Assembly: GCF_027921745.1 (NCBI RefSeq)
Contig: NC_079240.1
Span: 1,915,001-1,979,000, forward strand
Reading direction: 5' to 3'
Source: Schizosaccharomyces osmophilus
Lineage: Eukaryota; Ascomycota; Schizosaccharomycetes; Schizosaccharomycetales; Schizosaccharomycetaceae
Length of the DNA stretch: 64,000 nucleotides
The notes beneath the pieces were generated by a model. The model saw nothing but the letters and a program-made list of their open reading frames with translations, ran no database searches and was not told the origin of the DNA. Positions 56,702 to 64,000 of this stretch are shown one piece after another; position 1 is the first letter of the stretch; each line of letters starts with the position of its first letter. Position numbers and translations under genes: made by a program.

Positions 56702-57760
56702 GGTATCCCCTCACAAAAGGAAATCCCAAGTCGACCAATTTGCTGTTTTTCAATAATCATGGTGGCCCTGAACAAACCCATTTTGAGGAAGTTCCCGTGC
56801 CTGAACCTGCATCAGACGAAGTTCTGGTGAATATTAAATACTCGGGTGTATGTCATACAGACTTGCATGCTCTTCAAGGAGACTGGCCTTTGGACGTTAT
56901 ATTACCTGTCGTTGGAGGCCACGAAGGCACTGGCATATAGTGGTCAAATTTGGATATTCTGTTCAAAATGTCAAATAGGCGATCGTGTAGGAATCAAATG
57001 GATAAATGGATCTTGCCTTAAGTGTGAATATCGCCTTTCATCTTGCAAAAGTATTTACCCTGATATAAGCTTGTCTGGTTATTGGTGGATGGAACTTTTC
57101 GGTCCTATGCACTAAAAAAAGCCTCTCATGTCACACCGATTCCTCGAAATGCCCCTCTGGAAATGGCTGCTCCCGTTATGTGTGCTGGGGTTACTGTATC
57201 GAGCTCTCAAAGAAGCGAATATCAAACCTGCTGGCTGGGTTGTTCTTCCTGGTGCAGGAGGCGGTCTTGGTCATCTTGCCGTACAATATGCCAAAGCCAT
57301 GAATATGAGAGTGCTTGCTATTGACACTGGCACTGATAAAGAAGAGCTATGTAAGAGCCTTAGGGCTGAAGCTTTTGTTGATTTTCGAAAGGTGTCGGAT
57401 CTTGTTAGTACAGTAAAGGATCTTATGAATGGAGGTCCTCGTGGTGTTCTCGTACTTTCGACGAGTGCTAAATCTTATCAGCAAGCTACTTAGTTTGCCC
57501 GTCCTGGATCAACCATAGTAACCCTGTCCATGCCAGCTCAAGCTCAACTGAATGCAGACATTTTTTGGTTGACAGTGAAAATGCTCAAAATTTGTGGCTC
57601 GCACGTTGGTAATCGTCTAGATTCCATTGAAACTTTTAAATACGTGTCCCGAGGTCTCGTCAAACTTCATTACAAGGTTCAGCATTTCTCTACCCTTCCT
57701 GAGATATACAAGCAGATGTTTAAAGGAGCTATCGCTGGACGAATTGTTCTACAGCTTTAA
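56702..57760 (+). pseudogene. Decayed adh1-like zinc alcohol dehydrogenase
   Basis: Clear similarity along the whole of fission-yeast Adh1: [14 protein letters not shown] with catalytic zinc Cys, GGHEG with its His, PGAGGGLGHLAVQYAKAM (NAD fold), STSAKSYQQA, IFWLTVKMLKICGSHVGNR and the terminal AGRIVLQL. It is broken at least five times: a frame change near 56740, an early stop at about 56938, frame changes near 57080-57100 and 57200, and an in-frame TAG at 57491. One structural-zinc Cys (CLKCEYR) is also lost. No intron, ATG at 56702, stop at 57760. It is probably an extra copy, since adh1 is essential for fermentation and should exist intact elsewhere. Confidence 0.93.
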
Positions 57761-58288: not shown

Positions 58289-59242
58289 ATGAACCCATAT
58301 GAAACAAATTTATACAAAGTAACTCCCATTCCTGGAAAAGGAATGGGTATGGTTGCGAAAATTGACATTCCTGCAGGTTCAAGGATATATTCAGAAACGC
58401 CCTTAATCCGAACCAAAAGTGATGCAAAGGAGATTGAAGAAGCGCTTTCGTCCAAAACAAAAGAGGAACAGGAGGCTTTTCATAACTTGTTCAATGCGCA
58501 TCCTGAAAGCATGGGTCCTTTTTTGGGGCCCTTTTATTCCAATGCTCTAACGATTGATGAAAGCAAAGGTGGAATGTTTCTCTTAGGTTCAAGGATGAAT
58601 CATGATTGCAGTCCAAACGTGAAACATACGTGGAATTCAATTCTGGATCAGGTTACTGTTCACTCGGTTCGTGATATCCACTGTGGAGAAGAAATTTTGA
58701 CTACTTATATTGACTTACATAAAAGTCGAAGTGAACGGAAAAAAGTTTTATTGGGACATTTTGGATTTCCCTGTAGCTGTAGTGCATGTTCAGTGAAGGA
58801 CAAAAAGGAAGCGAAGATAAGTGATATTCGAAGAAAGCAACTGGCATACTATGATCGCACAATGCCAAAAATGTGTATTATGAATCCTAGAGGTGCGCTT
58901 CGTGCCTTGCGACACAGAATTTCACTTGCTAATCAAGAACGTCTCTTTGGGCGAATGGACGTTATTTCATATTTTGACGCTTTTCGAACATGTGTGGTGC
59001 ATGGTGATTTTGAACGAGCTTCCAATTTTGGAAAAAGAGGCATTGAAGCTCTTGTGCTTTGTGAAGGTGCCGATTCGTCTCGGTACGAGTCCATTGCAAA
59101 ATATGTAAAACAGCCGGAGCTACATCCTTTGGCGGAAGGGGTACGCCCTATGTCGTTGGTCCCCTTGGACGATTTTCAAGATCCAGAAGACTCATTATGG
59201 GGTTGTGAAATGGAAGAGGATGTATATAGTGATAGTGACTAA
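58289..59242 (+). CDS. set5: SET-domain protein Set5 (SMYD-like lysine methyltransferase)
   Basis: Predicted histone/protein lysine methyltransferase. 317 aa, single exon, ATG 58289. The split SET domain starts GKGMGMVAKIDIPAGSRI (about 16-33). The cofactor motif GSRMNHDCSPN (a variant of NHSCxPN) is near 109-119. GEEILTTYID lies near 145 and the post-SET cysteines in FPCSCSACS near 166-174. The C-terminal helices and acidic tail (EMEEDVYSDSD) resemble fungal Set5/SMYD proteins. Confidence 0.92.
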   Translation: MNPYETNLYKVTPIPGKGMGMVAKIDIPAGSRIYSETPLIRTKSDAKEIEEALSSKTKEEQEAFHNLFNAHPESMGPFLGPFYSNALTIDESKGGMFLLGSRMNHDCSPNVKHTWNSILDQVTVHSVRDIHCGEEILTTYIDLHKSRSERKKVLLGHFGFPCSCSACSVKDKKEAKISDIRRKQLAYYDRTMPKMCIMNPRGALRALRHRISLANQERLFGRMDVISYFDAFRTCVVHGDFERASNFGKRGIEALVLCEGADSSRYESIAKYVKQPELHPLAEGVRPMSLVPLDDFQDPEDSLWGCEMEEDVYSDSD

Positions 59243-59590
59243 ACCTTCTTTTGATATTGTTGTACTTTTAATTGTTAGACAGTGTAATATTTTTGGAAAA
59301 CAATGGGACTATTGAATTTTACAAGCAAAGTTATTTTCTCGATGTATTTTAGGTGGATGGGAATGAAATATGGTGCATCTTCTACAAGTAGAGTAATTCA
59401 TGTTTGGATTTTTCTGTAGAAAGTTGACTTTCACTCACCCAAAAAGTAAGTTCATCGATCGGTCAAAACCTTTTATAGAGAAGTATGTTTATGAGCATGA
59501 TGAATACATTAAATTAATAGTTTTTTGCTATTCAGCATAAGTGCATTCATGATGGAAAAATAATGAACTGAAAAGTTACACGAAAACTTA
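59243..59590. other. Intergenic set5 to tRNA-Gly
   Basis: About 350 bp; nothing seen. Confidence 0.7.
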
Positions 59591-59661
59591 TGCTTCGGCC
59601 GGGAATCGAACCCGGGTCGCTTCGATGGCAACGAAGCATTATACCACTAAACCACCAAAGC
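59591..59661 (-). tRNA. tRNA-Gly (GCC anticodon), no intron
   Basis: On the minus strand: acceptor GCTTTGG/CCGAAGC with G-T pairs, D arm, anticodon stem CTTCG/CGAAG with loop TT-GCC-AT, T arm CCGGG-TTCGATT-CCCGG, discriminator A. 71 nt, all invariant bases in place. A T-rich tail follows within 15 bp. Confidence 0.95.
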
Positions 59662-60520
59662 AGTTATTAAGTAGTCAATGAGAATGTATGTATATGAAAC
59701 GGTAACCCAAGTGCCATATGGATGAAAGCTGAAGTAAAAAGTTTACATGAAAAAGCCTTTGTGAAACTCGTTTTTCATACTTAGAGTGTCAAGAATTGAA
59801 GTAGCAAGTTAGCAAGGACAAAGCTATGTGTGCTATGTGATTTTGACAGAGAAAGCATCGTAAATTATGGGTTGTTCTTTGTTTATTCAAGTGGAAACAA
59901 AAGACTTGTGTTACTTGGCTAATTGTGACTTGACTATGATAAAACAGCTGCACAAGGAAAGCGAAAGAATTGCGTTTTGAGGCAGTTTTTCTCCTTTAGG
60001 ATCATCCAAATTGAGCTTTTTCTATTCTATCTTTAGTTTTTTTTTTAAAATGAAAAAGTAGAATCGATTTTTTTTTTCCTGCTATTACTCCCAATTAGCA
60101 ATTCGTCACCATTTACAAGTTTCTCGTCTAAGAAGAAATACACCTTGTCTTGATTATATTCTATTGTTTGCGAATTGCTAACGACATATAGCCCCTTTTT
60201 CGAGTTATTCTTTAAGTAGCAAGGGGCAGCATCATGGTTGGTTTATCGGTTTTTATTATAGCAAGCAATTGGATTGGTTTCAGCTTCTCTTATATGCTGG
60301 ACATATAACATCTACATTTACAAGGGCGCAATTTGTTTTGGTTATTTATTAATATTGATATTTTTCAATAATCACAAAGTCTGTAAATTATCAACTATAG
60401 CTAATGCTTTTCTTCTTCGCTAGCGGGGTTTGTGATAACGTAGTTTAAATAGTTGAAGAATATAAAATGATTTACACTTAGAAATTATCCATAGACTTTT
60501 CATCCATTTGGAATTCAATG
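59662..60520. other. Gap at the edge of the accessory patch
   Basis: About 860 bp of AT-rich DNA with no gene recognised. From here to the window end the content differs from the conserved S. pombe-like order. Confidence 0.55.
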
Positions 60521-60539
60521 AATGGTATAATTGCTGAAA

Positions 60540-61129
60540 ACCTGGTTGATTTACATTTCTATAAACAAACCAGAAATCGCAACGATTGTTATCTACAATT
60601 ATTCCCTCTTTGGTGTGTGTCTGTGCGATATCTTCCTACTTCCGAACATATACTTTTCTATTCGATGGCTTTAAAGATTGGGGCAATTGGCCCTTGGGTC
60701 TTCTGATTAATCATATTGTGATATTCATAGTATTTCTAGCTGCTTTTTTTTGTGAGTTCAACCATTTCCAGTTTATCGGTACATTTTATTGTTTACTAAC
60801 TAAAATATTAGGCCTTCATTCAATTATTCTTGGAACTGTTAGAGGATTGCTTTATGTGGTCATCTTGATGGGTTGTGTCCTTCCATTCCTTTTCAGTGCT
60901 ATTGGAAAAATCATTGGTATGGTCGTAGGTACCATAATGTACTGTGTTGGCTATGTATTGTACTGCACTCTTTTAGCCTGTCTTGGTTTTGAATTTTGTT
61001 AGCTCAACGGAGCACACGAGTTCGCCTACGCTTCCCAGCTATCAGCAAAGAGACAATACACTTGCTCCTCCACCGACGGATACGAATGAAGAAATAGAGT
61101 TGCAGAGTAATCCTGGTACTCAAATTTAG
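60540..61129 (+). pseudogene. wtf-like membrane gene remnant (fossil)
   Basis: A strongly hydrophobic stretch with several membrane-spanning segments (about 60590-61000) is followed by a Ser/Pro/Thr/Glu-rich tail (to the stop at 61129). The tail shares the run NEEIELQ with the tail of the wtf-type gene at 62.4-63.5 kb. The family's usual first exon was not seen, so it looks incomplete. It lies head-on to that gene with a 5S rRNA gene between. Wtf proteins are multi-pass; the tail match and context suggest an old copy, but a different small membrane family is possible. Confidence 0.45.
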
Positions 61130-61601
61130 TTCCGTTCATTTGTCTTCTTTTCTCTAGTTTGTTTGGACTTTACTGCTTACTCTGATCTCGATTGGTTATG
61201 AATTGGTTTGATGAACCATTATTTACTAACTTTATTATTATTATTATTTCAATTTCAGTTCGAATTGGCTTGAAACTGAGAAAGAATTCTTGTATTAGTA
61301 TGAGTTGATGACCGCAATTACAAGAAATGCATTTTAATTTCTCATTTCAAAGGCATTGAGTTGGTATGACCGCGGAAATTGAAAACGCAAGACTTACTGC
61401 AGCTACTTAATTTATTATGACTAATATTGTTGAATTCCCTAATCAGACGACTTTGAATTCATTTCATTCACATTAGGTCCCTTTTTTTTGTTTCCTGTTA
61501 CTTGTCGAGGAACGTCTCACAAGAAGGGAATTGAGAAAAGCATATCCAAGCATGAATTTACGTTCAACAAATCAAAAAATAAATAGAGAAAAAAATGAAA
61601 A
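61130..61601. other. Intergenic between wtf-like remnant and 5S
   Basis: About 470 bp, AT-rich with an (ATT)n-like stretch near 61230. Nothing else recognised. Confidence 0.6.
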
Positions 61602-61720
61602 AGCCTACAGCATCCCGGATTCCCATGTTGTCTCCAACCATAGTACTAACGAGACCCTCAGACGCTTAACTGCAGTGATCGGACGGGAACTGGTGTTTTC
61701 GCCTAGGTATGGCCGTAGAC
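61602..61720 (-). rRNA. 5S ribosomal RNA gene
   Basis: 119 nt on the minus strand, almost identical to fission-yeast 5S from memory: 5' GTCTACGGCCATACCTAGGC, internal control region around AGTTAAGCGTCTGAGGG, and 3' GGGATGCTGTAGGCT. Box A/IE/C order is intact. A T-rich terminator follows on that strand. In fission yeasts 5S genes are dispersed rather than in rDNA repeats. Confidence 0.97.
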
Positions 61721-61925
61721 ATTTGTTATGGTCTTTAAAGACAATTTATTAAAGTAATGATCCAGTCTTTTTGGCTTGATGAACTACAAGATCCAATTCA
61801 ACTCAGTTCTATCTGGTATTTTTGACGGCTAAATGGTGAATGCTTTCGAATCATAAGAATAATATTTGAAAACACACTGTTTTCTCTTTTTTATTGATTC
61901 ACATAATGGTCGCAGGAGCATCAAT

Positions 61926-62140
61926 TGAGTGTATGAGTTTATGGGTTGAAAATGTTACTCAATATAAATTGGGTACTACTTGAATCAAGGTCCGTCGACT
62001 TGACTCCCAAAGTAAACGGTAATTCAATGTTTTAAACTATATCAATCGATTCTTCCAATCTGAAGATTTATACTTTCTATGCTGTGAACGAATTTTACCT
62101 CTGGCGGTAATCACTTTCGTTCTTACAATTAATGAAAGAC
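61926..62140 (-). mobile_element. LTR-like dispersed repeat, copy C (old)
   Basis: Read on the minus strand, AATCTTCAGATTGGAAG (62068-62052) and the end AAACTCATACACTCA (61940-61926) are identical to copy A, with similar spacing (143 against 163 bp). The sequence between is much diverged, and the 5' end is uncertain. It lies between the 5S gene and the wtf-type gene. Confidence 0.42.
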
Positions 62141-62408
62141 ACGACACAGTGTTGAGTAAAAAACTAGTTAATTACGATGGTATTTTCCTCAGAATAATTA
62201 AATAATCATTAAAAAGGGTGTCTATTCATGCAGAAAATGAACGATGCCGTGAAACGAATAAGAAGATTCATGAAAGAGAAATGAGAAAAGCAATCAAAGT
62301 CTGCTGGTTTCAGCTGATCCAAGCTTTTGTGGAAACGAACACAGGAACTTGGTAGACTGCAATTGACAAGATGCGAAATATAAAGAACGAAAGCAGGTTC
62401 GGTAAAAC

Positions 62409-63474
62409 TCAAACATCAGCCCTTTGCTCAGCAAGAGGCTGAAGTTCGATTTCTTCGTTACGAGGTGGACCATTCCTGCTAATTCTGTTCTGACAGGTTA
62501 TTAAGAGATCCTAGATTAAGAATAATAAATGTACTTACTACACGTGTCATATCTTGAATATCTTCAATCACATCTGGGTTTCCTAGAGAAGTTAGAAAGG
62601 TTGATAGAAAATAGCACCTTACGAATGAGAAGAACAAACAAGCATATGTTCAGTACAGCTAAAACCATTAACACCGCAGCTGAATGTATAAATTCAAAGC
62701 TTCCTGATAATTTTAAAGCACCACCCCCAACTCCATTGAAAATAATGAGTGTAATTAGGTCTTTACACACAGCTGGCGCTCCTCCACCTTTCTTAATGTA
62801 CTTCTTTGTTGCTCTTCCAGCTTGCGTGAACAATCCCAGATAGAGCATATGCGTTGCTAATAGTTAGTAAATTGCTCAAAGTGAAAGACATTGTTGTTAA
62901 CTTACCAAATAAAAACAACCCTAACACTACAAAAAAGCTGCCAAAAAGCCACCAAAAGGCTTGTGCATTCACAGAAACCTTCAAACCGAAAAATAACACA
63001 GGTAAAACAGCATAGGCCGCAATGTAGGCAAAAGATGTAGAAAACAACAAGTACATTATTATCTGCCACTTATCCATCGAACTCGACCTAGTATTATTAA
63101 CAGTATCTTGGGCGGAATTTTGAGCGGATCCATCAGCCATTTCTAAATCAATAAATTTGCTTGAAGCTAATGGATGTATTAGTAAATAGTTCGTTGTTTG
63201 TGAAAAGATAAAGGTGTCTATTATGTTTGCTGACAGTTATCGACAAGGTTATTGATTTCAAACCCAACAATCAAATAAACAAGCATGATTCTTCCATCAA
63301 GAACCGTTCAAAAAGCACGCAAAGAATTAACCTCTCTATTTTAATTCAACAAATCTTACCTGTATACGGAGGAGGCGTACCATCTGAAGGAGACGACCGA
63401 CTATCTGCCTTTTCATCATTGAGCGTTTTGGAAGAGTCATCAGAATCTGAAATAGGAGAGTACTTGTTTTTCAT
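62409..63474 (-). CDS. wtf-type (killer meiotic driver family) gene, five exons, looks whole
   Basis: Exons 63474-63360, 63142-62906, 62856-62623, 62582-62539 and 62510-62409 keep phase throughout and give 243 aa; all introns have normal donors and TAG-type acceptors. Exon 1 starts MKNK, is rich in acidic and Ser residues, and ends in a PPPY motif, the hallmark of the soluble wtf N-terminus. The following exons encode several membrane segments and a polar C-terminal tail. As in known wtf genes, an ATG lies in frame at the very start of exon 2 (63140), giving a possible shorter form without the PY-containing part. From memory, wtf genes of the S. octosporus group lie beside 5S genes, as here. 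Whether it drives is unknown. Confidence 0.72.
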
Positions 63475-63794
63475 ATTTACAATCGCAATTAGATCCCTTT
63501 AATAATACCGATTTTTACACTCTAAACGAAATCAACTTTTGAATCGCCGAGAAAAGTCCGTAGGAACTGGTTCCGCTCTTCACAATTCTGTCAGAAAAAG
63601 GAATTGGACCTTGCTTAAAAAGCAAGCTAATCTTGCAACACGAGTGTTCCCTTAAAACCAAAGATACGAGTTTGAAAAACCTTGGTAATGGCTTTTCGCA
63701 TGTCTCAATTCATAAAAGCAGCGACATTATGTCACTGACTGGTCACAGTCCTCGTTACGATTATTCAACGTTGGTTTTTCATTGCGATTTTTCG
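63475..63794. other. Upstream region of the wtf-type gene
   Basis: About 320 bp between the start codon and LTR-like copy B. Nothing specific recognised. Confidence 0.5.
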
Positions 63795-64000
63795 TAATAG
63801 TATAATATAAAAGAGTCGTCATTTATTACAAAAAGTAAACAAAGGAAACATTTGGCAAAACAACCATGCTGTTTGCTTAAATTATAAATAGCAGGATTAG
63901 AAATGCAAATCTTTGTATTGGAAGGTTCCGTGACTTTGGCTTAACAGGTTTCACAGTTTTCATTTCGTTAATTAGATCCTAAACTTGAGAATAATTGGTC
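63795..64000 (+). mobile_element. LTR-like dispersed repeat, copy B (cut by window end)
   Basis: Matches copy A in AAAGAGTCGTC/TTTATTAC, then in ATTGGAAGGTTC and the CTTTGGCTT region, at similar spacing. It runs off the window. Same orientation as copy A; diverged, so old. Confidence 0.42.

What the first reader, a model, noticed from the sequence alone, without database searches (positions are those of the whole stretch)
62409..63474. Apparently whole wtf-type gene with the two-start layout
The gene splices cleanly into five exons. Exon 1 has MKNK and PPPY, and an in-frame ATG opens exon 2, exactly the layout by which known wtf drivers make a long and a short protein from overlapping transcripts. 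Beyond exon 1 it is strongly diverged from the S. pombe members I remember, so it may be an undescribed lineage. It lies in the only window segment without S. pombe-like gene order.
Basis: partly seen in the sequence, partly recalled or inferred. Interest (0 to 1): 0.9.

Follow-up and report, generated by a model that had tools for sequence, protein, structure and literature searches.

The report
Fission-yeast spore-killer gene, wtf family
The stretch holds an apparently intact gene of the wtf family, selfish fission-yeast genes that can make both a spore poison and its antidote; such genes outside S. pombe were described in 2022, so this is a well-preserved example of a known kind.

Summary
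On the minus strand, 63474..62409 splices into five exons with ordinary splice sites. All five exons score best in the proposed frame by codon use, and 0 of 200 dinucleotide shuffles gave a spliced frame that long. The long protein has 244 aa. A second in-frame ATG at base 27 of exon 2 gives a 197-aa form without the only PY motif (PPPY). A 5S rRNA gene lies 688 bases downstream on the same strand. These are published features of wtf genes outside S. pombe (PMC9562144, PMC10721834, PMC11892871). Sequence evidence alone is weak: Pfam WTF is the top hit, but E = 8e-4 and below the curated cut-off. Intron 1 lacks a convincing Mei4 (FLEX) site, and the exon-4 heptad repeat is absent. Most likely it is a poison-antidote meiotic driver or a recent derivative; activity is untested. 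'Undescribed lineage' is not supported: 83, 42 and 5 wtf genes (pseudogenes included) are catalogued in S. octosporus, S. osmophilus and S. cryophilus. I could not name the species or match the gene to a catalogue entry.

The parts
63360..63474 (-). Exon 1, antidote-specific: MKNK start and single PY motif PPPY (residues 34-37)
   Evidence: splice model; motif and codon score (0.218 in frame)
63167..63359 (-). Intron 1 (193 nt), where the short (poison) transcript would have to begin; no convincing FLEX/Mei4 site (best 9 of 11, reached by 20% of simulated introns)
62906..63166 (-). Exon 2; second in-frame ATG at 63140 (base 27 of the exon); encodes the first two membrane segments
   Evidence: compare base 27 of exon 2 in the S. 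octosporus wtf25 legend of PMC11892871
62623..62856 (-). Exon 3; encodes two further membrane segments, one of them marginal
62539..62582 (-). Exon 4 (44 nt); no IGNxxxG-type heptad repeat
   Evidence: (read from the translation)
62409..62489 (-). Exon 5 and stop codon; alternative in-frame 3' splice site would start it at 62510
61602..61720 (-). 5S rRNA gene, same strand, downstream of the wtf gene
   Evidence: Rfam RF00001, 107 bits, E 1.7e-22, model positions 1-120 of 120
60049..61130 (+). Possible decayed membrane-protein gene (limits set by eye), convergent with the wtf gene across the 5S gene; its tail (NEEIELQ) resembles wtf exon 5. Kinship not established
   Evidence: no Pfam hit for two pieces, no long intact frame, no DNA similarity beyond shuffles; tail similarity reached by 18 of 5000 shuffles, chosen after seeing it

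Best explanation
This is an intact member of the wtf family, of the kind found in the S. octosporus / S. osmophilus / S. cryophilus group. It most likely works as a single-gene poison-antidote meiotic driver or a recent derivative of one. A transcript from upstream of exon 1 makes the 244-aa antidote, whose exon-1 tail carries one PY motif that recruits Rsp5/NEDD4-family ubiquitin ligases and sends it from the Golgi to the endosome. A shorter transcript starting inside intron 1 makes the 197-aa membrane poison without that tail. The antidote co-assembles with the poison and carries it away, so only spores that inherit the gene survive. Shown here: gene structure, the two starts, the PY motif only in the long form, predicted membrane segments, the 5S neighbour. 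Inferred from published family members: transcripts, ubiquitination, toxicity, drive.
For: Five exons with good splice sites and an in-frame second ATG at base 27 of exon 2, the same base given in the S. octosporus wtf25 legend of PMC11892871 (the sentence there says 'Wtf4 poison', which I take as a slip for Wtf25, since it describes the wtf25 cartoon with exons 1-5). Open frame beyond chance, 0 of 200 shuffles, and codon bias in 5 of 5 exons. One PY motif in the antidote-only tail, as stated for the antidotes of intact wtf genes in S. octosporus, S. osmophilus and S. cryophilus (PMC10721834). About four membrane segments, within the four-to-eight range given in PMC11892871. Pfam WTF is the top hit, residues 1-144 on profile 1-156. 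With the first 46 residues shuffled, 2 of 3 proteins lose it and 1 of 3 keeps it at E 0.09; with the rest shuffled, 3 of 3 lose it. 5S rRNA gene alongside, as for 72 of 83, 33 of 42 and 2 of 5 wtf genes in the three species (PMC9562144).
Against: The Pfam WTF score (19.7 bits) is below the curated cut-off (25), and the short form alone gives no WTF hit. An unrelated membrane model (DUF2207_C) reaches E 0.0037, 0.0088 and 0.0085 in the three proteins with a shuffled N-terminus, so E 8e-4 is not strong by itself. There is no FLEX site in intron 1 beyond chance, and no exon-4 heptad repeat, which all functionally validated S. octosporus drivers have (PMC11892871). An intact layout does not guarantee toxicity: 1 of 5 non-pombe poisons tested in budding yeast (S. 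osmophilus wtf19) was harmless. No expression or functional data.
Confidence: 0.85

Rival explanations
1. An intact wtf gene that in practice makes only the antidote (a suppressor-like member): the exon-2 ATG is present but intron 1 no longer carries a meiotic promoter, so no poison is made.
For: Best FLEX-like match in intron 1 is 9 of 11 bases, reached by 20% of simulated introns. The heptad repeat present in all validated S. octosporus drivers is absent.
Against: 14 S. octosporus wtf genes without confident FLEX sites still show short transcripts (PMC9562144). None of 31 intact S. osmophilus genes has a confident FLEX site, yet the S. osmophilus wtf41 poison is toxic in budding yeast when expressed from another promoter.
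Confidence: 0.3
2. A membrane-protein gene of another family whose five-exon layout, second ATG and PPPY only look like wtf.
For: Pfam WTF below its cut-off and dependent on the N-terminus. PPxY motifs and internal ATGs are common in general (recalled).
Against: Several wtf features coincide: base 27 of exon 2, PPPY in exon 1, exon count, 5S neighbour, and an MKNK start (S. pombe side recalled). No other Pfam family scores better on the true protein.
Confidence: 0.05
3. A wtf gene with a hidden defect (for example a wrong exon-5 boundary or lost splicing), that is, a young pseudogene.
For: Exon 5 has the weakest margin in coding signal, two competing 3' splice sites serve intron 4, and the splice search preferred another 3' end. 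Pseudogenes are common: 35 of 83 in S. octosporus, 11 of 42 in S. osmophilus, 3 of 5 in S. cryophilus.
Against: No stop, frameshift or lost splice site in any exon of the model; both 3' choices stay in frame.
Confidence: 0.1

Closest known systems
wtf genes of S. octosporus, S. osmophilus and S. cryophilus (e.g. S. octosporus wtf25, S. cryophilus wtf1 = SPOG_03611), PMC9562144
   Different: No exon-4 heptad repeat (reported for many, not all, S. octosporus and S. osmophilus genes) and no confident FLEX site (absent from 28 of 48, 31 of 31 and 1 of 2 intact genes).
S. pombe wtf drivers (wtf4, wtf13, cw9)
   Same: MKNK start (S. pombe side recalled), PY motif in the antidote tail, poison from exon 2 onwards, membrane protein; Pfam PF03303 is the best hit.
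   [quoted passage not shown] pombe reference members. No GTAAACAAACA FLEX in intron 1, which all verified S. pombe drivers have. A 5S neighbour; no Tf LTR was looked for.
wag genes (wtf-associated genes)
   Same: Gene family often beside wtf and 5S genes outside S. pombe (PMC9562144).
   Different: wag genes are described between wtf and an upstream 5S gene and divergent from wtf. The decayed stretch at 60049-61130 is downstream and convergent, so by position it is not this gene's wag; a true wag neighbour could lie beyond the window end.

Membership tests
wtf (non-pombe type) | Five-exon structure | tested here: met
   introns GTAAG...YAG; no RNA to confirm, and the longest-frame search gave another 3' end
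[quoted passage not shown]
   ATG at base 27 of exon 2; same base in the S. octosporus wtf25 legend
wtf (non-pombe type) | Single PY motif in the antidote-specific N-terminal tail | tested here: met
   PPPY at residues 34-37, the only L/P-P-x-Y in the protein; family statement
wtf (non-pombe type) | Multi-pass membrane protein (4-8 segments) | tested here: met
   Four hydropathy segments, one marginal; range
wtf (non-pombe type) | Sequence similarity to the family profile | tested here: inconclusive
   PF03303 best hit, E 8.3e-4, 19.7 bits against cut-off 25; lost in the short form; controls
wtf (non-pombe type) | Association with a 5S rRNA gene (common, not universal) | tested here: met
   61602-61720, same strand; frequencies
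wtf (non-pombe type) | FLEX/Mei4 site in intron 1 (in all verified S. pombe drivers; optional elsewhere) | tested here: not met
   Best 9 of 11, 20% of simulated introns reach it; 0 of 31 intact S. osmophilus genes have a confident one
wtf (non-pombe type) | Heptad repeat in exon 4 (many genes, not all) | tested here: not met
   No IGNxxxG in the translation; no 21-base array in 59600-64000
wtf (non-pombe type) | Two transcripts, poison toxicity, antidote rescue, drive | not testable with these tools
   No RNA or strains
wag | Divergent gene upstream of wtf, between it and a 5S gene | not testable with these tools
   Window ends 526 bases upstream of the start codon

The most novel reading that the evidence does not exclude
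An uncatalogued, active wtf driver (for example in S. lindneri, for which the listings showed me no wtf catalogue) that makes its poison without a FLEX site and without the exon-4 repeats, so that poison timing and poison-antidote specificity rest on other sequences.
Probability: 0.12. Interest if true: 0.45.

Novelty: already known. Interest (0 to 1): 0.25.

Why it matters
wtf genes are well-studied killer meiotic drivers that have persisted over 100 million years (PMC9562144). A compact copy without the repeat and without the Mei4 site would help to tell which parts are needed for poison expression and for matching of poison and antidote. The kind itself is already described.

Tried and rejected
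Locus-tag text search, the taxonomy list and solved-structure matches did not give the species. Of the three structure searches only one search points to fission yeast (best match an aprataxin-like protein, S. pombe by recall); one search found no solved relative of the wtf protein.

FLEX site in intron 1: rejected as no better than chance. A guessed DNA pattern for an IGN-type heptad gave 18 matches in the window against 13.7 expected; the only one inside the gene (63093-63112) is on the opposite strand and not in exon 4.

The stretch 60049-61130 as a second wtf copy: not supported at DNA level (92 of 300 shuffles as good locally, 133 of 300 semi-globally) or by Pfam (0 families for 2 pieces). 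Of its three frames against the wtf protein, two are ordinary (73 and 72 of 300 shuffles as good) and one stands out weakly (6 of 300), but in a frame other than the long open pieces and across a stop. A tail match NEEIELQ is reached by 18 of 5000 shuffles, chosen after seeing it; its window-wide tblastn E is 17. In 59665-61600 the longest plus-strand spliced frame is 79 aa, lies outside the stretch, and is reached by 20 of 100 shuffles. As this gene's wag: wrong side and orientation.

A wtf21-set5 link in S. pombe came to mind from recall only and was not tested. An exon 5 starting at 62510 was set aside because it leaves a 28-nt intron.

Full report
Observation. The gene is on the minus strand. 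Joining 63474-63360, 63166-62906, 62856-62623, 62582-62539 and 62489-62409 gives a 735-base coding sequence (stop included) for 244 residues, and each intron starts GTAAG and ends in YAG. For intron 4 a second 3' splice site is in frame, but it would leave a 28-nt intron. The second in-frame ATG is at 63140, base 27 of exon 2; the short form has 197 residues. As a control, a splice-aware search for the longest open frame was run on the minus strand of 61721-64000. It found 266 aa, sharing exons 1-3 with this model but skipping exon 4 and ending elsewhere; the five-exon 3' end therefore rests on splice sites, codon use and family resemblance, not on this search. In 200 dinucleotide shuffles the mean was 68, the largest 156, and none reached 244. 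Codon scores trained on 17 other reading frames of the window favour the proposed frame in 5 of 5 exons, least clearly in exon 5.

What it is. Pfam's WTF model is the top hit among 24,736 models, residues 1 to 144, with E 8.3e-4 and 19.7 bits against a curated cut-off of 25. This is weak and I tested it. The short form alone has no WTF hit, nor has the N-terminal 47-residue piece. The first 126 residues (exons 1-2) have E 0.01. With the first 46 residues shuffled, 1 of 3 proteins kept a WTF hit (E 0.09), and another membrane model rose to E 0.0037-0.0088 in all three. With the rest shuffled, 0 of 3 had any hit; the one fully shuffled protein had no WTF hit. The hit therefore needs both halves, but membrane composition alone can give E values near it. 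No solved relative was found. The case rests on the combination of features.

Those features match what is published for wtf genes outside S. pombe. PMC9562144 (sections 5, 7, 8, 9, 11, 28, 34 and part 1 of 2 of section 6 read, plus passages) describes 83, 42 and 5 wtf genes, pseudogenes included, in S. octosporus, S. osmophilus and S. cryophilus. [quoted passage not shown] pombe-S. octosporus pair. PMC11892871 (sections 6 and 17 plus passages) gives base 27 of exon 2 as the poison start in its S. octosporus wtf25 legend, the same base as here (the sentence names 'Wtf4 poison', which I take as a slip). PMC10721834 (passages) states that antidotes of intact genes in these species carry a single conserved PY motif, and shows in S. 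pombe that PY motifs recruit ubiquitin ligases that keep the antidote harmless. Here there is exactly one PY motif, in exon 1. A complete 5S rRNA gene lies at 61602-61720 on the same strand, 688 bases downstream.

Differences. Intron 1 has no FLEX site beyond chance (best 9 of 11; 20% of 2000 simulated introns do as well). In PMC9562144 confident sites occur in 20 of 48 intact S. octosporus genes, 1 of 2 in S. cryophilus and 0 of 31 in S. osmophilus, and 14 S. octosporus genes without one still make the short transcript. The heptad repeat of exon 4 is absent (read from the translation). All functionally validated S. octosporus drivers have it, while one functional S. pombe driver lacks it.

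How it most likely works. Long form: antidote, diverted to the endosome through its PY motif. Short form from an intron-1 transcript: membrane poison. This is inferred from published members; nothing here tests expression or toxicity. Of five non-pombe short forms tested in budding yeast by others, four were toxic. An antidote-only state is the main rival.

Which organism. The window is a non-pombe fission yeast by inference. An aprataxin-like gene matches the solved aprataxin-like protein 3sp4 (S. pombe by recall) strongly but not identically (E 1.4e-81), and 5S-linked wtf genes are typical of the S. octosporus / S. osmophilus / S. cryophilus group. I could not name the species. If it is the reference strain of one of those three, the gene should already be in the 2022 catalogue. 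If it is S. cryophilus, wtf1 (SPOG_03611) is the likely identity, since the only other intact gene there lacks the exon-2 start; the missing FLEX site speaks neither clearly for nor against this, as I do not know which of the two S. cryophilus genes has one. For S. lindneri I saw no catalogue in the 10 papers listed by each (of 698; of 29). PMC10721834 said in 2023 that S. lindneri has wtf genes but lacked a high-quality genome, and PMC12930445 (passages) mentions a telomere-to-telomere S. lindneri assembly whose description is in preparation. Passages of PMC10085805 describe S. osmophilus wtf genes but do not identify this locus.

Neighbourhood. To the left lie a tRNA-Gly gene (59590-59662, minus) and a SET-domain gene (58289-59242, plus; S. 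pombe set5 by recall). Between the tRNA and the 5S gene, about 60049-61130 on the plus strand looks by eye like a decayed membrane-protein gene with a probable intron and a tail containing NEEIELQ, similar to this gene's exon 5. Tests do not establish kinship.

Verdict. 'Already known' here means the kind and its features; I did not match this copy to a named gene.

Noticed in passing
60049-61130 (+): Decayed-looking hydrophobic reading frames with a probable intron (about 60752-60811, by eye) and a C-terminal tail LPSY...NEEIELQ resembling wtf exon 5, convergent with the wtf gene across a 5S gene; no firm similarity found.
   Followed up: partly
56867-57493 (+): Two adjacent open pieces match alcohol dehydrogenase domains (ADH_N E 0.054, below its cut-off; ADH_zinc_N E 5e-13): a broken or spliced adh gene.
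   Followed up: partly
63224-63285: Two 9-of-11 FLEX-like matches in intron 1, not beyond chance.
   Followed up: yes
1740, 50784 (+) and 57860 (-): Better Mei4/FLEX-like sites (10 of 11 bases, intact GTAAACA core) elsewhere in the window; neighbouring genes might be meiotic targets.
   Followed up: no
62490-62538 (-): Intron 4 has two in-frame 3' splice sites 21 bases apart, so two C-terminal variants of the protein are possible.
   Followed up: no
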